Shown: in pieces, positions 25,501 to 38,736 of the stretch
Position numbering within the stretch: the stretch's first letter is position 1
Layout of the letters: each line of letters begins with the position of its first letter
Assembly (NCBI RefSeq): GCF_026210795.1
Contig: NC_089440.1
Location: 1,054,001 to 1,118,000 of the forward strand
From: Rhizophagus irregularis
Lineage: Eukaryota; Glomeromycota; Glomeromycetes; Glomerales; Glomeraceae
Direction of reading: 5' to 3'
DNA length: 64,000 nucleotides
Translations under genes and position numbers: made by a program
The notes under the pieces: generated by a model
Seen by the model: the letters and a program-made list of their open reading frames with translations, nothing else
Database searches by the model: none
What the model was told of the DNA's origin: nothing

Positions 25501-26020
25501 TTTGATTCCGAAATTGGATTATCGAATGCAAGTCACCCATTTATCTGAGGCTGAATGCTCCACTATTACTTCTTCAGTTCGTGCCTTAGTTAAACACAAG
25601 GCCAAATTATCACGCTCTGTTCCTAATGTGGTGTTATATTTAACACATGCTTTGGGTTTGATCAATTTATTTTCATTTCAACAACAAAGTCATTTTACTA
25701 ATTTATTTTTGTTAGCAAATTCTTCTTCTGTTTTTATGAAATCACTTTTTAATTATAGGTTGCGATTTATTCAATTTTATTGTTTAATTCCTATTTCTCC
25801 TTTGATGGTTTTGGATTGGACTTGTTGGTCTTCTCTTTTAATTTTTAAACAAGATTATATCACTAATACTTTAGCCTCATTACTCTCGACTCCCTTCCGT
25901 TTGTCACGTGCTGATTTATCGTCTGTGCCTGATTTAACCTACCCCAATGGCCATACTCCCATTTATCAATGTCTTTCTTTGGATGTATTTAAAGCCAACT
26001 TAACAAGACTTTGAAAACGT
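22555..26020 (+). pseudogene. LINE ORF2, 5' part: endonuclease and reverse transcriptase
   Basis: The start MMNDNIDYDTFV is in a different frame from the endonuclease; the shift lies near 22698. The APE endonuclease is 22752-23440: GIVDTHL, HGRSSGGVSLFIHNS, HAICGDFNMN and HISDHNPII carry the family's catalytic motifs. A one-base loss in the C run near 24385 shifts frame before ..SMISYEMLKHLGPS. The reverse transcriptase follows: PLWILSQDISKAFDSVD (motif A), IGIDQGEVISPLLW (B), LVFMDDSTLIS (catalytic DD, C) and FRFLGVWFNING (D). TGA at 26012-26014 stops this frame 6 bases before the LTR insertion. The frame resumes at 38737 on the other side. Confidence 0.85.
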
Positions 26021-27400
26021 TGTAGCCATAGATACTGAAGTAATCGCATAATATGGAGGAATAATATGGAATAAAAGATCAAACGATAGAAAGTCACATG
26101 ATTGGATAAAATTAACCGGAAAGGATAAACTTTTAGGAGAAGGAATGATCTACATGATGTAATGTTTATTAAATGATTAACGGAGAACCAATAGATCAAG
26201 TGGGGAGTTGATCGATGTGGCTTGGCAACCAGTTTATCAAGTTCAACAATAGGAACAATTAGGAGGAGTAATCATAAGCCACAAATGATAAATCATATAA
26301 AAAGGAAGGATAGCGAATTAAAGGAACAAAAAAAAATAGGAACATGTAAAATATTGATGAACTGCAGCCGCAGTAGAAGAATAGCTGACGAGACGCAGTA
26401 GAAAAGATAACACAGCCACAAAAGATGGATCTTTATGATATAATATTTGAAAGATTATTTTATTTTAAAGAAGAGATAGCACAGCCACAAAAGATGGATC
26501 TTTACGATATAATATTTGAAAGATTATTTTATTTTAAAGAAAAGATAGCACAGCCACAAAAGATGGATCTTTACGATATAATATTTGAAAGATTATTTTA
26601 TTTTAAAGAAAAGATAGCACAGCCACAAAAGATGGATCTTTACGATATAATATTTGAAAGATTATTTTATTTTAAAGAAAAGATAGCACAGCCACAAAAG
26701 AGGGATTATATCTTTACGACATAATATGCGAAAGATTATTTTAAAGAAAAGATAGCATATTAAAATAGTATAACATATTAGAAAAGATAACATATAAAAT
26801 AGCATATAAGATAGCGCATAAAAGATAACATATAAAATATTAGAAAGAAATAAGAAGTAGGAAAAGAAAGAATAAGAAAGTTGGTTTAAATAGGAGCGGA
26901 ATGGGAAGTGAATTCCACAGTCGTCAGATACGATGTAAAACTTTAAGTAAATTAGTTAATTGTGAATTTTATGAAGAATAAATAAAATACCCTTTGATAT
27001 GAAAATAAATTGTTTCGATTGTTTTTGTTACTATTTTCTTATGATGAAAAAGTAATTTTGTTTAATTAATTGTTAGTAAAGCGTAATGTTATTTTAAAGG
27101 TAATAGGTTCGCCCTAAACTTTACTGTAATGTTCGCTTAATTAATTTTAATTGGACAAATTCATGGTGAATTTAATGTCATAACAAGAATTATGAAATGA
27201 ATAAAATATAAACTTTTGTAAAGAGAACTATCGTATTTTGAAAGAAGATAATGGATGAAATATCGTGGCGAGAGCTATCGCAATTTGAAAGTTAAGTAGT
27301 AATAAAACTAAACCAAGCAAGAATATTAATGTTTCGTGGAGAACGTATATACGTTAAAGCAGGGAAGTTTGTTTACCGCTGGGTGGCAGACGGGGTGACA
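26021..27400 (+). repeat. 5' LTR
   Basis: TG..CA ends. A TATA-like CATATAAAAAGG lies near 26287-26298, and AATAAATAAAATA near 26975-26988 could serve in polyadenylation; both are inference. Four tandem 69-bp units lie inside (listed separately). It is nearly identical to 37352-38732. Confidence 0.92.
26410..26705 (+). repeat. Four 69-bp tandem repeats in the 5' LTR
   Basis: The unit contains CACAGCCACAAAAGATGGAT and ATATTTGAAAGATTATTTTA. Being 23 codons long, the array reads as an open frame of four copies of a peptide starting MDLYDIIFERLFYFKE (26425-26724). An identical array lies in the 3' LTR (37741-38036). I do not call it a gene, since repeats of length divisible by three stay open by default. 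Confidence 0.85.
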
Positions 27401-27470
27401 ATTTGGTGCATGCTCCAAGAAAGGAAATGTCGACTTTGCGTCGACATTTTGACTATCTTCATATAGTCAA
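27401..27470 (+). promoter_or_regulatory. Primer-binding site and two hairpins
   Basis: Three bases after the LTR, TGGTGCATGCTCC starts with TGG, as expected for pairing with a tRNA 3' CCA; the tRNA could not be named. Next come a perfect 10-bp stem (AAATGTCGAC / GTCGACATTT, 27425-27449, 5-base loop) and a 6-bp stem (GACTAT / ATAGTC, 27451-27468). Stem-loops here suit RNA packaging or dimerisation signals; that role is inference. Confidence 0.6.
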
Positions 27471-29132
27471 GTACCTATGCGGTATTAAGAAGGAAACGGT
27501 TAACAACTAAGTGAATTGATCACTCGCGAAGGGAAGGATCGTTCCGATCATGGTACCGACGTGGTATTCCGAAGAATCTGAACTCAGAAAAAGAGGTGTT
27601 AGAATTAAAATATAATATTGGGGAAAAAGGTTGTAAGTACCTGAAAAACTTTAAAATGGGAACGGGCGAAATAGCGATATTGTACACCTACCTTAGGAAT
27701 TATAAAAAGAAGGATGCGGTGATATGATGGAATATAATGAACTCGTTTCAAAATAATAGATTTATTACAGGAAAATCCGGAAAGTATTGTAGTAAGTCAC
27801 AAAAGTTGTTGTCTTTGAAGTTTTCGCGCTAATAATTGTAAAACCGAGAAATTTAGGAAGCCCTCGTAAGATGTGGTATTCTGGGAGGGGCACCATTGTA
27901 TTTTGCAGATGCCAGAAGTTCCTGGGGATACAATGTTGTAATGAAAAGTTGACGAGTAAGCTATAAACTCAAGGGTTACGTGGGAACCTATTACCAAAAC
28001 ACAAGGGTTGCGTGGGAACCTATTTAAAACACAAGGGTTACGTGAGAACCTATTACAAAAACACCGGCTGTGAATATAACTTCTTCAGATGGGAATTGAA
28101 ATAATTGGACTCAGACGTGAGTGGAACATCTCCCTACTGAAAGCATTTTGAAAATGCGTAATTGAATTCACAAGGCAAAAAGAGAAACCATCGTGAGTAT
28201 AACTTCTTCAGATAAAACTGAAAGCATTTAGAGAAATGCGCAATTGAACTCACGAAAAGAAGATGAACGTTATGGAATAATGCGAAATTTAGGAATATTT
28301 GCTGGTCAAATGATAAAATGTGAATAGCAAACCTCGAAACTACTATACTTCATTGTGAAGGTAAAGGCAAGCCGAGTATAGGTTATTAAATTGTAAAAGA
28401 TAATAAATAAGAAGAAACACCGTTAAATAAGTATAAATGCGTGTGTCGCATAAGTGTAAATGCGTGTGTCGCATAAGTGTAAATGCGTGTGTCGCATAAA
28501 GTATAATATGTTGTGTGTCGACATAATGGTGATAATAAGAATTAGTACAAGATTAAACAAAGAAGATATTTTGCATAATATTGAATATATAGATGTAAAG
28601 ATTACATATATAATGAAAAAGAACTAAAAATTCACAAACTTTAGAAGTTATGAGAATTTTGAAGTTCGTGAAATGCGAAAATTACAAATTTTGATGATAA
28701 AAGAAAATTTTGAGGCGCAGTAAAAACTTAGAAAATTTTTGGAATTTTTAGAATGCGCAATAAAAACCTCCGCAGTCTGAGGAGATTGTGGACTTAGAAT
28801 AATTTTTGAATTAATGGCGCAGTAAAATATATACATGAAATTATGAAAGATAAGAATAGCAGAAGAAACTTGTGAAAATCAAAAAAAAGAGGATTTAAAG
28901 ATTGAAAGATTAATATAAGAATATTATGAATAAGTAAAAGATTTAGAAAAAAAAAAAATAAGTTGTGAAATGAATATTCATAATGAAAGAAAGATTATAC
29001 ATTCAATATAGGTAATAGGAAAGGACAATATAGTAAAGGATGGTTAGAAGATCAAAATAGAAGCGATAAAAATGATATATAAGAGAGTGGAATTTCAATT
29101 TGAATTCTGGATGAATATTTATAATAATTTAA
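27471..29132 (+). other. Retrotransposon leader with short repeats
   Basis: The leader runs about 1.7 kb before gag with no long ORF. It contains three copies of ACAAGGGTTACGTGGGAACC-like sequence (27970-28055), a GAAAGCATTT..AATGCG element twice (28140-28245), and three tandem 23-bp units with AAATGCGTGTGTCGCATAAG (28436-28500). The leader is A/G-rich. Confidence 0.6.
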
Positions 29133-32100
29133 TTGGAGTATACGATGGAATGGTACCATCAATGGGAAAGTGAATATAGGACACATAAAGAAGAACATGA
29201 GTTAAGAACGGGAGAATTAGATGAATGTTTAAATTGTGAATTATGTCATCCGATAGGAAATGAACCAATGGTATTCAAGAAATTTTGGGATGCATTATTT
29301 AAATTCGAAGATACAATAATAATATATAATAACGTAACGATCAAGGGAGTAATAGATTTATTAAGTATGGATAATTCAGAAAGAGAAGATACAATACACA
29401 AGGGAAAATGTAGAGACATAATGGATAGAATAACAGAATCAATAAGATATAGGATACAACCAAAAATGAAAGAAAAAGGATTACGGACAATTATACTAGT
29501 AATCGTAAGGGATTATATCGAAAGAAATTTAGAGAATGAAGTATTTGACAGATTAATTGGGAATCCTGAATTAGTAGAACATAAATATATCTTGGAAGGT
29601 TGGGATGTCGAAAGAAGATTTGAGAAATTTTGGCAATGGTATAGAGTCGCATTAGGAGAAATTAGAGCTGTAAAAGCAGAAGTAGGAGCAATAGAGAAGT
29701 TCAAAGAATTATTATATGAAGAAGAAAAAATAGCGGAAAGTGAAGAAAAAGTGAAGGAATTAATGCGAGGAATAATATATGAAAATATAGAAATAGATAA
29801 TGTTCAAGAACATCATAAGAATATGATACAAAAGATAATAAGAATATTTATAGACACTAGGGGCTTTACAAAAGAACCAGAGGATTCAGAGAGTGAAGGT
29901 AGTCCAGCGAGTTACGAATTAGAAAATAGTTCTGAGGAAGAATTAGAGATAATAATAGGAGACAAATCATGGAAATTTAGTGAATTAAAGAGAAGGACAA
30001 GTTCTATAGATGAAGATCAATTGAGATACATTTGGAAGATAGGAATAAAGTTGATGATAGAAATGGATATATTGGTAACGAAAATATTTATAGATAAAGT
30101 CCAAGAGGTAGAGGAAATGGATGAAAGGGAAAAAGAATTGGAGATGAGAGAATGGTTAGAAAAAGAAACAGTAATATGTAAAAGATGTGGTATTAGGAGA
30201 TTCGAAATGGACAGAACAGATAATGAATGTGGGGAATGTATTAAAGAAATGCAGAAAGATGAACAAGATGAGTTAGCAGAATTAAAAGATGATTTAGAAA
30301 AATTGGGATACGAAATAGATGTATCAGAAATTCAAAGGATAAAAAGTTTTGGAGTAAATAATCGAATAATAATAACTAAAGAATTTGTGGAAGAATATAT
30401 GGAAATGATAAATTTGGAAGATAAAGAATTAAGAAAAGAGATTCATAAGTGGTTAAATGAGAGTACAACTTGGTGTGAAAGATGCGAAATAAGATGGATG
30501 AATGATATGTTTAGATTAGGAGGAACTGTATGCAGAGATTGTGAAGAAGAAGATATTAATGAAATTGATGATCGGGTAAAAAGATTACAGAAGATTTTTG
30601 AGGATATTGGAATAATGATAATTGAAGAGGAATTGTTAAGATTAACTAGTATGGGATATACAGATGGAGAAATTTTAGATAAAGAATTCATTGAAATCTT
30701 TCAAGAAAATAAGAATGAGTCGGAAAAAGAATTGAAGAAAAAGTTAGATAAGTTGTTGAAAGAACAAGCAGGAGTAATGGATAGTGAAGAAAGTGGTGAA
30801 AAGAGTGATAATGAAGAATCAGAAGAAGACAATACGGATAATTCAGAAAAGATTGGAGAAATATTAAGTCCGGATGAAATATGGGACGGAAGTGATGAAG
30901 ATTTTGAAGAAGAAGAATCTGAAAATGAAATCGAAAATGTTATAAATACAGGAGGTTTTGGTCTGAATCAAAATTCAGATTCGAATAGTTCATTAAATTT
31001 TAAAAATTCTGACACAGAAAGTGAAATATCTGATTACAATTTACAAGAATTATTTCAAGAGAATATAGTAAATATGGCAAATGAAGCACAAATAAGAAGA
31101 ATAATGGAGAATGCTATGGGATTGGCACCAAATGCATTAGATAATGCGTTAGGAGCAGGACAGACTTTGGCGGATAGGATTCAGACTGCAGGAATGGGGG
31201 GAATAGTAGGTATGCCAACTTTTAGTGGAAAAGAGGATGAAGATATTAATGATTGGATTAGACAATTTGAGATAGCATTTACAGTAAGTGGACGACCAGA
31301 AGGAAATGTTGGAGGAGGTGTATGTAGACAAAATAAGGCAAACATAGCTATAACTTGTTTAAGAGGAATTGCATTACAATGGTATAATGAGGAAAAAGAA
31401 AGGGTAGCAGCTAATTTAGTGAATTGGTGTGACCATAATGAGGACAGGAATTTAAAAAGAAGATTAATCGACAGATTTACTAGGAATGATGTTCAAAGAA
31501 GAAAGATGTTAGAATTAACAAGAATTAGACAGGGAACAAATGAAAGTGTTGAGGAATATACTAGAAGATTTAGGTCAATATTAAGAGTTGCAACTAGAGG
31601 TCATGCGTTAGATGATTTATATCAAGTGAATTATTTTATTCAAGGGTTAGATGCTATGCTAGGTTATCATGTTAGGAGAAGTAATCCGACGAATCTGAAT
31701 GATGCAGTTAACGAAGCAAAAAGAGAAGAGGAAGCGAAGGATGAGTTGTTAATGAAAACAACGGGGTTAGATATGAAACGAGTAGGACAAGAGAAAAACA
31801 TGGAAGAAATTTTGAAAGAAGAGACAAATGAATATAAAGGAATGAATCCAATTGCGAAAGAATTACAAAAAAAAGAAGTTAAAAGTGAGGAATGGGATGA
31901 GTTAATTAATGGAATGAAAAGGTTGGAAGCACATGTAATGCAAAGAAATGAAGCGTATGTAATGCAAAGGAATAGGAATGATAGGAGACCGATCGGAAAT
32001 AATAATGTCCAAAGAAATAATATGAACTGGGATAGAATGACTTGCTATACATGTGGAAGAAAAGGACATACTTCTAGAGTTTGTAGGGAAGGTCAAAGAA

Positions 32101-32696
32101 GATCATATGGAGGAAATAATAAAGGGTCATATAGCCAAAATAATCAAGTTAATTACCTTGATGAAGAATATTATGGTGAAGGATATAATGTGTATAATAT
32201 GGAATATAATGATGAATATGATGGATATAATGAGGGTGGTGGATATGATAACTATAATAATGGATTCGATGGATACGAAGTGAATAACTATGAAGATGAG
32301 GAGAGATATGATATGTTCCCAGTACCACCTAGAAAGAGTGAAAGAAATAAAGACAAGGTTATGAACGATGAAAGAGATAGAAGAAGAAATGCACAATGGC
32401 AAGGACAACAGCAAAAAGCACAGGAGAATAATAAGAGGGGTTTTACAAAAGAACAATTACAGAAAGGATATGAAACTAGAAAGAATAATAATAGGTGTCA
32501 CAATTGTGGACAACAAGGACATTTTGCTAGAGAATGTACAAACGAGAAAGTGAAGTTAAATCGAAATATACCAAATGTTGGAGATTTTGATCCATTTGAA
32601 CAATTTGTAAATTCAAGCGTACCAATTAATTGGGGACAAATGATGAATGAAAGACCAGAAGTAAGGAAGAAATTATTAAATGGTTTGAGATATTGA
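29133..32696 (+). CDS. gag: Gag polyprotein with long N-terminal extension
   Basis: 1187 residues from MEYTMEWYHQWESEY. The capsid-like gag core starts near residue 700 (DWIRQFEIAFTVSG, then LRGIALQWYNEEKE and TNESVEEYTRRFRSILRVA). Two CCHC zinc knuckles that bind genomic RNA follow at about 970 (CYTCGRKGHTSRVC) and 1121 (CHNCGQQGHFAREC). The first ~650 residues are unusual for gag. They are acidic and contain paired CxxC motifs near 32, 349-371 (CKRCG..CGEC) and 448-470 (CERC..CRDC). The last two sit in repeated ~100-residue units, so they are probably zinc-ribbon-like. The N-terminal Met is the first long-frame ATG. The frame ends at TGA 32694-32696, and the same frame reopens as protease. 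Confidence 0.9.
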   Translation: MEYTMEWYHQWESEYRTHKEEHELRTGELDECLNCELCHPIGNEPMVFKKFWDALFKFEDTIIIYNNVTIKGVIDLLSMDNSEREDTIHKGKCRDIMDRITESIRYRIQPKMKEKGLRTIILVIVRDYIERNLENEVFDRLIGNPELVEHKYILEGWDVERRFEKFWQWYRVALGEIRAVKAEVGAIEKFKELLYEEEKIAESEEKVKELMRGIIYENIEIDNVQEHHKNMIQKIIRIFIDTRGFTKEPEDSESEGSPASYELENSSEEELEIIIGDKSWKFSELKRRTSSIDEDQLRYIWKIGIKLMIEMDILVTKIFIDKVQEVEEMDEREKELEMREWLEKETVICKRCGIRRFEMDRTDNECGECIKEMQKDEQDELAELKDDLEKLGYEIDVSEIQRIKSFGVNNRIIITKEFVEEYMEMINLEDKELRKEIHKWLNESTTWCERCEIRWMNDMFRLGGTVCRDCEEEDINEIDDRVKRLQKIFEDIGIMIIEEELLRLTSMGYTDGEILDKEFIEIFQENKNESEKELKKKLDKLLKEQAGVMDSEESGEKSDNEESEEDNTDNSEKIGEILSPDEIWDGSDEDFEEEESENEIENVINTGGFGLNQNSDSNSSLNFKNSDTESEISDYNLQELFQENIVNMANEAQIRRIMENAMGLAPNALDNALGAGQTLADRIQTAGMGGIVGMPTFSGKEDEDINDWIRQFEIAFTVSGRPEGNVGGGVCRQNKANIAITCLRGIALQWYNEEKERVAANLVNWCDHNEDRNLKRRLIDRFTRNDVQRRKMLELTRIRQGTNESVEEYTRRFRSILRVATRGHALDDLYQVNYFIQGLDAMLGYHVRRSNPTNLNDAVNEAKREEEAKDELLMKTTGLDMKRVGQEKNMEEILKEETNEYKGMNPIAKELQKKEVKSEEWDELINGMKRLEAHVMQRNEAYVMQRNRNDRRPIGNNNVQRNNMNWDRMTCYTCGRKGHTSRVCREGQRRSYGGNNKGSYSQNNQVNYLDEEYYGEGYNVYNMEYNDEYDGYNEGGGYDNYNNGFDGYEVNNYEDEERYDMFPVPPRKSERNKDKVMNDERDRRRNAQWQGQQQKAQENNKRGFTKEQLQKGYETRKNNNRCHNCGQQGHFARECTNEKVKLNRNIPNVGDFDPFEQFVNSSVPINWGQMMNERPEVRKKLLNGLRY

Positions 32697-32699
32697 CTA
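32694..32699 (+). promoter_or_regulatory. Candidate stop-codon readthrough site (TGA CTA)
   Basis: Gag ends TAT TGA CTA C. The protease frame continues in the same frame with no other stop, and protease lacks a suitable ATG before its active site. UGA followed by CUA is an established leaky context in some viral and cellular mRNAs, and gammaretroviruses use in-frame readthrough between gag and pol. Confidence 0.6.
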
Positions 32700-33302
32700 C
32701 ACTCGGGGGAATTGAAGAATATTAATCAGAAAGAAGAAAAATCACAAGCAACAAGATGTAATATAATAATTGAAGGAAAAATGATTAGAGCATTAGTTGA
32801 TACAGGAGCAGGACCTTCAGTAATAACGAATGAACTGAGAAAAGAATTAAATATACCAATAACGAAGGAAAGTAATGTCGTATTAACAATAGCAGATGGA
32901 AATAACATAGCTTCATTAGGAAGAGTGGAAATTAGAATAGAAATTGATGAAAATTTAGAAATACCTTTAGAGTTCAAAGTAATTGACTCGGGAAGAAAAG
33001 ATTTGATATTAGGAACTGATTTATTAAGATATGGGATAATAAATATGAAAGAAGGTCTGTTAACAATAGAATGGGATAATGGAATATATGAAATACCAAT
33101 TGATTTTAGAGGAAAGAAAAATGTTGAATTTGAGGAGTCAGGGAATAGGGGTGAATTTAATGGAGATCCAGAGAATATAGATGATATAGATGGCAATTCT
33201 AGTGAAGAGTCAGAGGTTGAAGATGAATATGAGGAGATGGAAAAAGAAGAGTTATTATCGATTGTAAAAACTGATAGAGAAAAGAGGGATGAGGAAAAAT
33301 GA
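32697..33302 (+). CDS. Aspartic protease of the LTR retrotransposon
   Basis: About 200 residues in frame with gag beyond the TGA. The active-site motif ALVDTGAGPSVIT and the downstream hydrophobic flap/ILGTD motif (KDLILGTDLLRYGI) identify a retropepsin-type enzyme, which dimerises to cut the polyproteins. The only early Met, MIRALVDTGAG, would begin too close to the catalytic Asp, so expression by readthrough from gag is likely. The C-terminal third is acidic (SSEESEVEDEYEEMEKEE). Its TGA overlaps the pol start as ATGA. Confidence 0.85.
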   Translation, partial: LHSGELKNINQKEEKSQATRCNIIIEGKMIRALVDTGAGPSVITNELRKELNIPITKESNVVLTIADGNNIASLGRVEIRIEIDENLEIPLEFKVIDSGRKDLILGTDLLRYGIINMKEGLLTIEWDNGIYEIPIDFRGKKNVEFEESGNRGEFNGDPENIDDIDGNSSEESEVEDEYEEMEKEELLSIVKTDREKRDEEK

Positions 33303-35632
33303 ATGGTCTTGGCTTTCTGAATGAAGGAGAGACGGTAAAGATGCTAAATGAGAGCAAAGAAGAAAAATTTGAAAAGAAAACACATCTGGGAGAAATGAGC
33401 GATGAGGAGAGAATAGCATTTAAAAAATTGATAAGGGAATATGAAGATATATTCGAATATGACGAAGAGAAATTGGGAAGGATAAATACAGTTAAACATG
33501 AAATAATAATTGAAGAAAATCAAGGACCAATAGCACAAAAGAGATATAAAGAAACTGATGAAAAAGGAAAGTTTATAAAGAAAGAAATTGAACAATTGTT
33601 AAAGATGGGGAAGATAAGAGAATCATGGAGTAATTGGGCATCTCCAGTAACGTTAGCAGGAAAGAAAACTGGAAATTATAGATTTTGTATAGATTATAGA
33701 AAGCTAAATAATGTGACAAAGTCAGATGAATATCCTTTACCCCGGATAGACGAGTTGTTAGAAAAATTTAGAAAGGGAAGTTGGTTCACAAGTTTGGATT
33801 TAGCAGCAGGATATCATCAAGTAGAAATGGCAGAAGAAGATAAAGAGAAAACAGCATTCATTTGTTCACAAGGATTATATGAATACAATGTTATGCCATT
33901 TGGATTGAAGAATGCACCAGGAACATTTCAGAGATTAATGGATAAAATATTAAAAGAATATATAGGAGAATTTGTTACAGTGTATTTAGATGATATAATG
34001 ATTTATTCAGAAGATTTTGAGGAGCATATAGAACATGTAGATAAAGTATTGAGTAAATTGAGAGAGAATAATATGATTGTGAAATTGAAGAAATGTCAGT
34101 TTGGATTGAGAAATATAAATTTCTTAGGGCATATAGTAGGAAGAGATGGATTGCGACCGGATAAAGAGAAAGTTGAGAAAATAGAAAATATGAGGAGGCC
34201 GAAAACTGTCACAGAAGTAAGATCATTTTTAGGATTATGTTCATATTATAGGAGATTTATAAAAGGTTTTTCGAAGATAGCAAAACCTTTGCTTAACTTA
34301 ACAAGAAAGAATGAAAAGTTTGAATGGAAAGAAGAACAACAAGAAGCATTTGACGTATTAAGGACAAAATTGACAGAAAATCCAATTTTAGTATATCCGG
34401 ATTTCAGCAGAGAATTTATATTGATAACTGATGGATCTAAGATAGGACTAGGAGCAGTGTTAGCTCAAATGAATGAAGAAAATAAAGAGGTTGTAATAGC
34501 TTACGCAAGTAGGAGTACAGTTGGAGCAGAGAAGAATTATCCACCAACAGAATTGGAATGCTTAGCGGTATTTTGGGGAATACAACATTTTCAGAAATAT
34601 TTAGTAGGAAGGAAATTTATAGTGATAACAGATCACGCAGCATTAAAAGGATTAACAGACGGAAAGGAACAAACGGGAAGGAGAGCAAGATGGGTAATGA
34701 AATTACAACAATTTGATTTTAAAATAGTACATAGAAGTGGAAAGAAAATTAAAAATGCAGATGGATTATCAAGACTGAGATTTAAAGAAAAAGAAACAGA
34801 AAGGAACGAGAATCAAGAAATAACAAAAATAGAAAGTAATAAGGGGAAATTGAGATATATCAAATTTAGGAATAAATGGTATAATGCTAAAAGATTTAAA
34901 GGGAGATGGGATGATGAAAAATATTTTACCGATAAAGAAGCAATACTTTTGAATTTGGAGGAAAGGACAGAAAAAGAATTATTAAAGAAATTGGGAAGAG
35001 AAAATAAGCCACAAGTTATTATAATCGATGGAGTGGATGGATTAGGAAAAACAAGTATAGTACAAAATTTGATTAAAGAGTGGGAAAAGCAAGGATTAAA
35101 AGTAAGATTTAATACATTCAAAAGGAGAAGAAAAGACAAAGGTGAATTTCACGAATCAAAATTAGAAACAGAATGGAAATTTAGAAAGGAAGTAGTAGAA
35201 CAAATAAACAGAAGAATATTAGAATATGATGAAGATACGGATATAATAATTCTAGACAAATCGCCATATTGCGAATATTATTATCAGAAGACGAAAAGTT
35301 TCAACAGAGGATTAATTACTCCACATGGGAACCATGAGATGGAAAAAGAAATATTCAGATTAAAAGGAACAATAGATGAATCAATAGTGATATTTTTGGA
35401 AAAAGATGGCGATGTATGTTGGGAAAATTATATTGGAAGAGAAATGAAGAAAATGGAGAAATCGTCATACCCAACATTAAAGAAAAATGAATATTTGGAC
35501 ATGGTTAAAATGTTTAAAGAAAACCAGGATGTATACAAAGATACCAAAAGATACAGTCAAATTGAAGTTAGGAATGACGATAGTAGTTGGAGAAAAGTAT
35601 ATAAGGAGATAGAAAAACACCAAAGAGCTTAA
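33299..35632 (+). CDS. pol: Pol: reverse transcriptase, RNase H and thymidylate-kinase-like domain
   Basis: 777 residues. Reverse transcriptase spans about residues 70-320: NWASPVTLAGKKTGNYRFCI, WFTSLDLAAGYHQVEM (first catalytic Asp), MPFGLKNAPGTFQRLMD and VTVYLDDIMIYSED (YxDD). RNase H spans about 370-490: FILITDGSKIGLGAVLAQ, NYPPTELECLAVFWG, FIVITDHAAL and KNADGLSRLR. After a ~70-residue link, residues 570-777 form a P-loop kinase: Walker A VIIIDGVDGLGKTS, a DRx-like LDKSPYCEYYYQ (Lys in place of the usual Arg), VIFLEKDGDVCWENYIGREM and a C-terminal helix EYLDMVKMF..VYKD. This layout is that of thymidylate/deoxynucleoside monophosphate kinases. The whole ORF is open. The ATG overlaps the protease stop. 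Confidence 0.9.
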   Translation: MNGLGFLNEGETVKMLNESKEEKFEKKTHLGEMSDEERIAFKKLIREYEDIFEYDEEKLGRINTVKHEIIIEENQGPIAQKRYKETDEKGKFIKKEIEQLLKMGKIRESWSNWASPVTLAGKKTGNYRFCIDYRKLNNVTKSDEYPLPRIDELLEKFRKGSWFTSLDLAAGYHQVEMAEEDKEKTAFICSQGLYEYNVMPFGLKNAPGTFQRLMDKILKEYIGEFVTVYLDDIMIYSEDFEEHIEHVDKVLSKLRENNMIVKLKKCQFGLRNINFLGHIVGRDGLRPDKEKVEKIENMRRPKTVTEVRSFLGLCSYYRRFIKGFSKIAKPLLNLTRKNEKFEWKEEQQEAFDVLRTKLTENPILVYPDFSREFILITDGSKIGLGAVLAQMNEENKEVVIAYASRSTVGAEKNYPPTELECLAVFWGIQHFQKYLVGRKFIVITDHAALKGLTDGKEQTGRRARWVMKLQQFDFKIVHRSGKKIKNADGLSRLRFKEKETERNENQEITKIESNKGKLRYIKFRNKWYNAKRFKGRWDDEKYFTDKEAILLNLEERTEKELLKKLGRENKPQVIIIDGVDGLGKTSIVQNLIKEWEKQGLKVRFNTFKRRRKDKGEFHESKLETEWKFRKEVVEQINRRILEYDEDTDIIILDKSPYCEYYYQKTKSFNRGLITPHGNHEMEKEIFRLKGTIDESIVIFLEKDGDVCWENYIGREMKKMEKSSYPTLKKNEYLDMVKMFKENQDVYKDTKRYSQIEVRNDDSSWRKVYKEIEKHQRA

Positions 35633-35647
35633 AATTATATTTCCAAA

Positions 35648-35989
35648 ATGGTATTAGGAGATTGTTATATGAATTGGTTTCTTACCTATCGAGTAAAGGT
35701 CGATAAGATATGGAAAGTGACTATAAAAGAAGAAGAGAACGAAACAATTATCCATTTAAGGATCGAAGAAGAAGAAGACTTCATACTAGTAGATGTACAC
35801 ATTATAATAAGACTAAAAGAGAAAAAGGTGAAATTAATTATGGAAGATGGAAACAATATGATAATAGAAGAAAGACCAATAGAAAAAGGATTAGGATGGG
35901 TACGATCTAAATTGATTATAGGGAACGAAAAATATATAAGAAGGATAGAAATACCAAGGATCAAAAATAAATCAAGAGATAAAAATTAA
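35648..35989 (+). CDS. Small unknown ORF between pol and integrase
   Basis: 113 residues (MVLGDCYMNWFLTYRVKVDK..), 15 bases after the pol stop and in the same frame. It is rich in Glu, Lys and Ile, with beta-strand-like alternation (ETIIHLRIEEEEDFILVDVH) and a basic end KNKSRDKN. I do not recognise it. It could be an accessory protein, or a piece once joined to pol or integrase. Confidence 0.5.
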   Translation: MVLGDCYMNWFLTYRVKVDKIWKVTIKEEENETIIHLRIEEEEDFILVDVHIIIRLKEKKVKLIMEDGNNMIIEERPIEKGLGWVRSKLIIGNEKYIRRIEIPRIKNKSRDKN

Positions 35990-36133
35990 AAATATATGGA
36001 ACAGTTATCACGACGCTTTATTTTTACAACACCTTAATTTTTACAACACCTTAATTTTTTTTTACAACACTTCAACCCTTTATAACATTTCAACCTTTTA
36101 CAACACTTTAGCTTTTAGAATTACAACATAGAC
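35990..36133 (+). repeat. Spacer with TTTACAACAC repeats
   Basis: Five to six imperfect copies of (T)TTTACAACACCTTAA-like sequence lie between the small ORF and the integrase ATG. Unlike the flanking ORFs, the spacer is T/C-rich. A leader or initiation role for integrase translation is possible but unproven. Confidence 0.65.
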
Positions 36134-37321
36134 ATGGAAGAGGAAGAATATAATAGGATAGCGAGGAATATCAACGACGAACGGGAATATGAAATTATAG
36201 GAGGATTAATTTACAAAATAAAAGATGAGAAAAGACTAAGAGTGACAAGAAAATATGAATTTGAAGGGTTAATGTACATAGCTCATGATCATGAATTATC
36301 AGGACACTTTGGAATAGATGCAACGTATAATAGGATCAAGGATGGGTATTATTGGAAAGGGATGAGAAAAGATGTAGAAGCTTATGTCAAATCATGTAAT
36401 AATTGTCAGAGGAGAGGAAAACCAATAGGAAAACATGAACTGAATGTAATCAAAGTTATAGAACCATTTTATCAAATTGGGATTGATGTAGTGGGACCAT
36501 TACCAGTAACAAAGAGAAATAATAGATATATAGTTACAGCGATGGATTATTTTACAAAATGGCCTGAAGCAAAGGCATTGGAAACAGCAGATGCTAAGGA
36601 AATTGCAAGATTTATTTATGAAGATATAATATGTAGGCATGGATGTCCAAAGAAGATATTGAGTGATAGAGGAAGTCATTTCAATAATAAATTAGTGAAA
36701 TCATTAATGGAGGGATTTCAGATAAAACATAACTTTTCGACGCCTTATCATCCAAAAACTAATGGGTTAATTGAAAGATTTAATAAGACATTATGTGAAT
36801 CATTAGCAAAGCTAAGTAATATCGAAGATTGGGATTTGAAAGTACCAGGAGTATTGTTCGCGTATCGAACTAAAAGGAATGATTCAACGAAAATGAAACC
36901 AGGATATTTAATATATGGGAGACAAATGAAGACATTATTAGATTTAGAAGATAAGGAAATTACCATGGCAGAGAGAGTTAATGGGTTGATCGAAGGATTA
37001 CCAAACATTAGGAATCAAGCTAAAGAAAATGTCAGGAAATCTCAGGAAAAACAAAAATCGTACCATGATAAAAAGAATAGAATAAAGCAGAAATTACAAA
37101 TCGGAGATAAAGTACTATATTATGATGCAGCAAAAGAGAAACAATGGTCTGGAAAGTTAGAAGAAAAATGGAAAGGACCTTATTATGTACATGAGATAAT
37201 TTCTAAAGGATCATACAGAATTAAAACTATGGAAGGGAAGATATTGAAAACACCAGTGAATGGTGAATTACTGAAGGAATATATTGATAGGACAAATTTT
37301 GAAGTAATAGTTCGAATTTGA
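36134..37321 (+). CDS. Integrase, separate ORF
   Basis: 395 residues from MEEEEYNRIARNIND. The zinc-binding HHCC domain is at about residues 52-90 (HDHELSGHFG, CNNCQRR). The DDE core has GIDVVGPLPV, SDRGSHFNNK and NGLIERFNK, with exactly 35 residues between the second Asp and the Glu, as in retroviral/Ty3 integrases. The C-terminal GPY/F module is KWKGPYYVHEIISKGSYRI. No chromodomain is visible. The enzyme inserts the cDNA and here would give a 4-bp (possibly 5-bp) duplication. In most Ty3 elements integrase is part of the pol polyprotein. Here it has its own start after a non-coding spacer. Confidence 0.92.
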   Translation: MEEEEYNRIARNINDEREYEIIGGLIYKIKDEKRLRVTRKYEFEGLMYIAHDHELSGHFGIDATYNRIKDGYYWKGMRKDVEAYVKSCNNCQRRGKPIGKHELNVIKVIEPFYQIGIDVVGPLPVTKRNNRYIVTAMDYFTKWPEAKALETADAKEIARFIYEDIICRHGCPKKILSDRGSHFNNKLVKSLMEGFQIKHNFSTPYHPKTNGLIERFNKTLCESLAKLSNIEDWDLKVPGVLFAYRTKRNDSTKMKPGYLIYGRQMKTLLDLEDKEITMAERVNGLIEGLPNIRNQAKENVRKSQEKQKSYHDKKNRIKQKLQIGDKVLYYDAAKEKQWSGKLEEKWKGPYYVHEIISKGSYRIKTMEGKILKTPVNGELLKEYIDRTNFEVIVRI

Positions 37322-37337
37322 TGGGACTCAAATTTTA

Positions 37338-37351
37338 GGTGGGGGGCAAAC
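37338..37351 (+). promoter_or_regulatory. Polypurine tract
   Basis: GGTGGGGGGCAAAC directly precedes the 3' LTR (TGTAGCC), the usual place of the plus-strand primer. Confidence 0.75.
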
Positions 37352-38732
37352 TGTAGCCATAGATACTGAAGTAATCGCATAATATGGAGGAATAATATGG
37401 AATAAAAGATCAAACGATAGAAAGTCACATGATTGGATAAAATTAACCGGAAAGGATAAACTTTTAGGAGAAGGAATGATCTACATGATGTAATGTTTAT
37501 TAAATGATTAACGGAGAACCAATAGATCAAGTGGGGAGTTGATCGATGTGGCTTGGCAACCAGTTTATCAAGTTCAACAATAGGAACAATTAGGAGGAGT
37601 AATCATAAGCCACAAATGATAAATCATATAAAAAGGAAGGATAGCGAATTAAAGGAACAAAAAAAAATAGGAACATGTAAAATATTGATGAACTGCAGCC
37701 GCAGTAGAAGAATAGCTGACGAGACGCAGTAGAAAAGATAACACAGCCACAAAAGATGGATCTTTATGATATAATATTTGAAAGATTATTTTATTTTAAA
37801 GAAGAGATAGCACAGCCACAAAAGATGGATCTTTACGATATAATATTTGAAAGATTATTTTATTTTAAAGAAAAGATAGCACAGCCACAAAAGATGGATC
37901 TTTACGATATAATATTTGAAAGATTATTTTATTTTAAAGAAAAGATAGCACAGCCACAAAAGATGGATCTTTACGATATAATATTTGAAAGATTATTTTA
38001 TTTTAAAGAAAAGATAGCACAGCCACAAAAGAGGGATTATATCTTTACGACATAATATGCGAAAGATTATTTTAAAGAAAAGATAGCATATTAAAATAGT
38101 ATAACATATTAGAAAAGATAACATATAAAATAGCATATAAGATAGCGCATAAAAGATAACATATAAAATATTAGAAAGAAATAAGAAGTAGGAAAAGAAA
38201 GAATAAGAAAGTTGGTTTAAATAGGAGCGGAATGGGAAGTGAATTCCACAGTCGTCAGATACGATGTAAAACTTTAAGTAAATTAGTTAATTGTGAATTT
38301 TATGAAGAATAAATAAAATACCCTTTGATATGAAAATAAATTGTTTCGATTGTTTTTGTTACTATTTTCTTATGATGAAAAAGTAATTTTGTTTAATTAA
38401 TTGTTAGTAAAGCGTAATGTTATTTTAAAGGTAATAGGTTCGCCCTAAACTTTACTGTAATGTTCGCTTAATTAATTTTAATTGGACAAATTCATGGTGA
38501 ATTTAATGTCATAACAAGAATTATGAAATGAATAAAATATAAACTTTTGTAAAGAGAACTATCGTATTTTGAAAGAAGATAATGGATGAAATATCGTGGC
38601 GAGAGCTATCGCAATTTGAAAGTTAAGTAGTAATAAAACTAAACCAAGCAAGAATATTAATGTTTCGTGGAGAACGTATATACGTTAAAGCAGGGAAGTT
38701 TGTTTACCGCCGGGTGGCAGACGGGGGTGACA
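37352..38732 (+). repeat. 3' LTR
   Basis: 1,381 bp, matching the 5' LTR apart from one substitution (GCC versus GCT) and one extra G near the end. It includes the same four 69-bp tandem units (37741-38036) and ends GGGGGTGACA before the ACGT duplication. Confidence 0.92.
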
Positions 38733-38736
38733 ACGT

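What the first reader, a model, noticed from the sequence alone, without database searches (positions are those of the whole stretch)
35009..35632. A nucleotide (thymidylate-like) kinase fused to retrotransposon pol
Residues ~570-777 of the pol ORF, right after RNase H, show a Walker A (DGVDGLGKTS), a DRx-like LDKSPYCEYYYQ and a VIFLEKDGD strand plus ENYIGREM, in the order found in thymidylate/deoxynucleoside kinases. The ORF is intact and the element young, so the domain is probably kept by selection. dUTPases are known in some retroelements; I cannot recall or verify a kinase in this place. A kinase packaged with reverse transcriptase could raise dTDP/dTTP supply where cDNA is made, in quiescent fungal nuclei or hyphae. 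The Arg-to-Lys change in DRx may alter activity.
Basis: partly seen in the sequence, partly recalled or inferred. Interest (0 to 1): 0.92.

Follow-up and report, generated by a model that had tools for sequence, protein, structure and literature searches.

The report
Retrotransposon family carrying a nucleotide kinase
A family of jumping genes in mycorrhizal fungi carries, beside its DNA-copying enzyme, an intact and selectively preserved domain that looks like the kinases that make DNA building blocks, suggesting that the element helps to feed its own copying machine.

The parts
26021..27400 (+). 5' LTR (TG...CA), with a 69-bp tandem repeat array inside
   Evidence: end placed by the TG..CA rule and the 4-bp target-site duplication
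37352..38732 (+). 3' LTR; one substitution and one 1-bp indel against the 5' LTR
26017..26020 (.). target-site duplication ACGT, left copy (AACGT, 5 bp, also fits if the LTR is taken one base shorter)
38733..38736 (.). target-site duplication ACGT, right copy
29133..32696 (+). gag ORF (from the first TTG of the frame, 1187 aa; Retrotrans_gag at 738-840 and CCHC knuckles near its end)
32712..33302 (+). aspartic protease ORF, same frame as gag after a stop
33299..35632 (+). pol ORF: RT - RNase H - module - kinase, 777 aa
33662..34138 (+). reverse transcriptase (RVT_1, residues 122-280)
34400..34714 (+). RNase H (RT_RNaseH, residues 368-472)
34850..35008 (+). conserved ~53-aa module before the kinase (strands and helices in the model); present in the A and C copies read, absent from the B copy read; aligns with the stretch after the Nudix box of P0126
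35009..35629 (+). thymidylate/deoxynucleoside-kinase-like domain, 207 aa
35030..35056 (+). Walker A, GVDGLGKTS
   Evidence: the Lys is identical in 36 of 36 DNA copies
35111..35131 (+). NTFKRRR, basic stretch after strand 2
35255..35287 (+). DKSPYCEYYYQ, in the place of the DR(x) / ERS motif
35438..35452 (+). REMKK, LID-like basic stretch
35648..35986 (+). small ORF between kinase and integrase; 25 matches in the genome, 21 of them full length at 86-100%; role unknown
36134..37321 (+). integrase ORF (Integrase_H2C2, rve)

Best explanation
A Ty3/gypsy lineage of Glomeraceae fungi captured a nucleotide-kinase domain between RNase H and integrase and has kept it. Shown: the domain lies in open frames of pol or of the integrase ORF, it folds (by prediction) as a thymidylate/deoxynucleoside kinase, its catalytic-type residues are almost invariant, purifying selection acts on it, and it has been exchanged as a cassette between element subfamilies. 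Inferred: it is made with Pol (or with the integrase product), is packaged, and phosphorylates a deoxynucleoside monophosphate (dTMP most likely, since basic residues follow strand 2 where deoxynucleoside kinases have a catalytic Glu) so that dNTPs do not limit reverse transcription in hyphae or nuclei that are not replicating. That is the logic of the dUTPase of non-primate lentiviruses, which is coded in the same place.
Against: The window domain scores below Pfam's cut-off (24.7 against 27), and many P-loop families match the Walker A part. A PDB sequence-profile search ranks FtsY first through the P-loop and puts thymidylate kinase only at E 0.09. The DR Arg is Lys throughout A1. dCK/dGK fit as well as TMK within the tie range. 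One D-type pair gives a kinase dN/dS of 0.66 (L074-L078, a copy with a stop), and within A the kinase ratio (0.22) is twice that of RT (0.10). Some predicted proteins have other neighbours: P0030, P0033 and P0138 show gag-like or coiled-coil sequence, not RNase H, before the kinase. No expression, packaging or activity data.
Confidence: 0.55

Rival explanations
1. The domain is a deoxynucleoside (salvage) kinase, like dCK/dGK, acting on deoxynucleosides rather than monophosphates.
Against: Thymidylate_kin matches 33 of 39 members, best 7.4e-8 against 1.6e-4 for dNK; after strand 2 the family has NTFKRRR, basic, where dNKs have a catalytic Glu (recalled).
Confidence: 0.2
2. The domain binds or hydrolyses ATP but serves another end: a 5'-end polynucleotide kinase, an assembly ATPase, or a host-factor binding module of Pol.
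For: Broad P-loop similarity (AAA, NB-ARC, KTI12, Zeta toxin); the invariant Lys for Arg departs from both known motifs.
Against: The similarity to Thymidylate_kin runs past the P-loop to the LID region, and the 50 structural rows shown are TMKs, dCK/dGK and the nucleoside kinase AbmG.
Confidence: 0.2
3. A passenger: a captured host gene fragment that copies carry without use.
For: LTR elements can carry captured host genes (PMC3726574, title and start of abstract in a listing); no kinase match in 30 loci of other gypsy copies here.
Against: dN/dS about 0.05-0.2 in most comparisons, catalytic-type residues invariant, subfamilies with the domain in different frames, cassette exchange.
Confidence: 0.04

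Closest known systems
dUTPase of non-primate lentiviruses (FIV, EIAV, CAEV, visna)
   Same: A nucleotide-metabolism enzyme coded in pol between RNase H and integrase; by most studies critical only in non-dividing cells (PMC4531489, passages)
   Different: Another enzyme class and fold; here the element is a fungal Ty3/gypsy retrotransposon; no phenotype is known
Thymidylate kinase family (Pfam PF02223)
   Different: 12-16% identity to the TMKs listed; DK in place of DR; fused to RT-RNase H or to integrase; one TMPK-like gene of the fungus (C13) gave no phmmer match to 140 family proteins
Deoxynucleoside kinases (dCK, dGK; PF01712)
   Same: Fold, tied in Z
   Different: Basic stretch after strand 2 instead of the catalytic Glu (recalled); weaker profile match
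Orchid Ty3/gypsy elements with an m6A demethylase (2-ODD) domain (PMC9289625) and bdelloid rotifer LTR elements with dUTPase and captured ORF3 enzymes (PMC5408684)
   Same: LTR retrotransposons that captured and kept an enzyme (abstracts and passages)
   Different: Other enzymes and places; the bdelloid dUTPase lies between PR and RT; neither text holds the word kinase

Membership tests
Ty3/gypsy LTR retrotransposon | Two near-identical LTRs (TG..CA) with target-site duplication | tested here: met
Ty3/gypsy LTR retrotransposon | Order gag-PR-RT-RH-IN | tested here: met
   with the kinase between RH and IN
Thymidylate kinase (PF02223) | Profile score above the curated cut-off | tested here: not met
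   24.7 bits against 27 for the window domain; relatives P0027, P0047 and P0056 carry the precomputed PF02223 label, and P0125 scores 27.4
Thymidylate kinase (PF02223) | TMK fold | tested here: met
Thymidylate kinase (PF02223) | Walker A P-loop | tested here: met
   GVDGLGKTS; Lys in 36 of 36 copies
Thymidylate kinase (PF02223) | DR(Y/F/H) motif (recalled) | tested here: not met
   DK invariant in the 39 rows of A1; followed by Ser in all but P0053
Thymidylate kinase (PF02223) | Phosphorylates dTMP | not testable with these tools
   needs an assay
Deoxynucleoside kinase (PF01712) | Fold | tested here: met
Deoxynucleoside kinase (PF01712) | Catalytic Glu after strand 2 (recalled) | tested here: inconclusive
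   NTFKRRR there by sequence reading; no residue-level structural alignment was available

The most novel reading that the evidence does not exclude
These fungal Ty3/gypsy elements carry their own nucleotide-supply enzymes: a kinase that makes dNDPs (dTDP first) beside reverse transcriptase, traded between element subfamilies as a cassette, and, in a second gypsy lineage of the same genome, a Nudix hydrolase before the protease. Capture of nucleotide-pool enzymes would then be a repeated strategy of retroelements that live in long-lived coenocytic hyphae.
Probability: 0.45. Interest if true: 0.88.

Novelty: new variant of a known kind. Interest (0 to 1): 0.77.

Why it matters
LTR retroelements were known to carry dUTPase, which cleans the dNTP pool; the listings of my paper searches showed none with a nucleotide kinase, which would enlarge the pool. 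If the domain works, dNTP supply is likely to limit retrotransposition in arbuscular mycorrhizal fungi, and a purified domain makes that question directly testable. It also shows an accessory enzyme moving as a cassette between element lineages.

Tried and rejected
Recent capture from the host's own TMPK: not supported as far as tested; exon pieces of one TMPK-like gene (C13) gave no phmmer hit among 140 family proteins at E<=10; the second TMPK-like place (C24) was not compared. Relatives in viral contigs, in GTDB genomes and in the phage collection (P0126 only): none found; these scans need close relatives. Origin from a Nudix-kinase gene: P0126 (a metagenome protein) joins a Nudix domain to the kinase and its linker aligns with the module; in the genome its 105 matches start at residue 157 or later, one at 114, so they do not reach the Nudix box, and residues 1-195 gave only one chance-level hit (E 4.2) in the loci held then. 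It stays a lead. The Nudix lineage found later is a different RT clade. PDB sequence profile: FtsY first, through the P-loop; not taken as homology beyond the P-loop. dTTP demand: 35 kinase-bearing loci average 44-46% A and 9-11% C on the sense strand (43% and 9% in the window element), against 31-40% A and 15-21% C in 17 kinase-less loci, so first-strand cDNA is T-rich; but A+T of the element (69%) is no higher than that of the rest of the window (71%), and the kinase elements are one clade, so this counts as one observation.

Full report
WHAT IS THERE. The window lies in a 146.7-Mb genome of 32 contigs; near-identical proteins are named Rhizophagus irregularis, so the host is that fungus or a near relative (inference). 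A Ty3/gypsy element runs from 26021 to 38732: LTRs of 1380 and 1381 bp differ by one substitution and one 1-bp indel, with TG..CA ends and a 4-bp duplication ACGT. Gag, protease, RT-RNase H and integrase are in the usual order. The 777-aa pol ORF goes on after RNase H through a ~53-aa module into a 207-aa P-loop domain and stops at 35632; after a gap of about 500 bp with a small ORF the integrase ORF follows.

HOW WIDE. The genome gives 151 matches to the domain (150 of 171 candidates scored; list cut): 21 near-full-length rows at 95-100%, by my count about 58 at 83-88%, the rest lower or fragments; by my count 15 listed rows hold stops. In 5.8 billion proteins three searches gave 38, 77 and 112 hits, 140 distinct proteins; every hit with an organism name is Rhizophagus (irregularis, clarus, diaphanus) or Glomus cerebriforme, the others come from sources that name none. 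JGI labels some of these 'thymidylate kinase' or 'dTMP kinase'. IMG/VR, GTDB genomes and phages gave none.

ARCHITECTURES. A (window): RT-RH-module-kinase, gap, IN. B (L075): RT-RH-kinase without the module, IN ORF 60 nt on. C (L073): like A, with a gap of ~140 nt. D (L074): RT-RH ends, and the kinase opens the integrase ORF. Predicted protein P0028 joins RH, kinase and IN. Not all fit: P0033 and P0138 show coiled-coil or gag-like sequence before the kinase, P0030 a gag and a protease start, and relic L003 a coiled-coil-like stretch; I did not settle whether these are deletions, gene-model errors or another arrangement. P0126, among the most distant, is a Nudix-kinase protein (NUDIX 2.4e-5).

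SELECTION. Pairwise NG86 on 36 loci: the 30 best hits to the window (L005-L034) and six picked places (L073-L078), so biased to intact copies. Kinase A x B, 210 pairs: median dS 0.60, dN 0.061, ratio 0.10 (0.08-0.15). Within B 0.053 (45 pairs; RT 0.051 over 15 pairs, IN 0.22 over 45). Within A 0.22 (210 pairs; RT 0.10, IN 0.16). A-C and A-D kinase ratios are 0.20 and 0.27 with dS over 1.2, near saturation. A decayed D copy (L078) gives 0.66 against L074. Pairs are not independent. Walker A Gly and Lys, Asn of NTF, DKS, Tyr, Gln and LID Arg-Glu are identical in 36 of 36 copies; five other marked residues in 35 of 36; the Phe of FKRRR is Tyr in 9.

CASSETTE EXCHANGE. Identities: RT-RH A-B 68%, A-C 78%; IN A-B 59%, A-C 82%; kinase A-B 87%, A-C 61%. 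A-B dS is 0.58-0.61 in the kinase but 0.98-1.09 in RT and 1.3-1.5 in IN, so constraint alone does not explain it (two pairs). Trees of 15 rows (of 36 loci; A 5, B 5, C 1, D 3, E 1): RT and IN reject A+B as a clade (p 4e-5, 0.001), kinase rejects A+C (p 0.009). The groups were named after the identities were seen; C and E are single copies, and in the IN tree three rows are under half filled. Along DNA, A-C identity falls and A-B rises to about 0.9 between 34969 and 35029, at the start of the kinase core (B has no module, so A-B cannot be read just before), and A-B falls again near 35590-35630. Template switching between co-packaged RNAs is the likely route (inference). The donor was probably the B lineage, since its RT sister E (L076) has a kinase 73% identical to A's; the kinase tree leaves the order of C and E open.

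KINASE-LESS RELATIVES. Of 30 loci with the best RNase H scores none has a kinase match within the 1.5-kb flanks; 25 of the 30 gave a long enough RT row for the tree, where 15 kinase-bearing rows (of 36 loci) and 25 kinase-less rows part at a 100/100 branch. These 30 are top-scoring, not random.

MECHANISM. Shown: presence, fold by prediction, selection, exchange. Inferred: translation with Pol, packaging, (d)NMP kinase activity, aid to cDNA synthesis where dNTPs are low. The lentiviral dUTPase is the model: coded between RNase H and IN and, by most studies, critical only in non-dividing cells (PMC4531489, passages). The Arg-to-Lys change is invariant in A1, so it is a property of the family and not decay.

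LITERATURE. Searches: thymidylate kinase + LTR retrotransposon, 0 papers; + gypsy, 3 papers, all on baculoviruses by title and abstract start; other term sets listed 8-20 papers each out of more, and no listed title or abstract start describes such a domain. Two papers on R. irregularis transposons were searched for passages only; those shown do not mention it (PMC11075540, PMC8647823). The library lacks most subscription papers and preprints, so absence here is not proof.

SCORE. A real, selected accessory domain in a retrotransposon family that my searches found unreported, with a clear precedent in principle (dUTPase): new variant of a known kind, interest 0.77.

Noticed in passing
L080 (G000:C1:3032500-3036400), ORF 3-2777 minus; by coordinates also near L056, L060, L072 and at C8:2203088 and C19:2338464: A second, kinase-less gypsy lineage carries a NUDIX domain (37.8 bits, cut-off 21.1) before protease-RT-RNase H in one 925-aa frame (only this copy was read). 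6 of the genome's 18 NUDIX matches lie within 2.4 kb of a listed RNase H.
   Followed up: partly
P0126, JGI metagenome contig of 6198 bp: Nudix domain fused to the same kinase (38-47% identity to the other A2 rows); a possible link between the two captures.
   Followed up: partly
window 35648-35986: Small ORF between kinase and integrase: 25 matches in the genome, 21 full length at 86-100%, four of the 25 with an internal stop or two among the listed rows' marks aside from open ones; dN/dS 0.43-0.56 in four comparisons; NCBIfam gave only one weak hit (E 0.04).
   Followed up: partly
window 27401-37351: Sense strand with 43% A and 9% C, a strong bias (lentivirus-like, recalled) shared by the 35 kinase-bearing loci measured and not by 17 kinase-less gypsy loci.
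   Followed up: partly
L044 (G000:C23:946397): A kinase-less gypsy lineage has ~300 aa of unknown Cys/His-containing protein between RNase H and integrase.
   Followed up: no
window 29133-32696: Very long gag ORF (1187 aa) with the gag domain only at 738-840 and ~700 aa without a good Pfam match before it; gag and protease are in one frame with a stop between.
   Followed up: no
window 26331-26844 and 37662-38175: 69-bp tandem repeats inside both LTRs.
   Followed up: no
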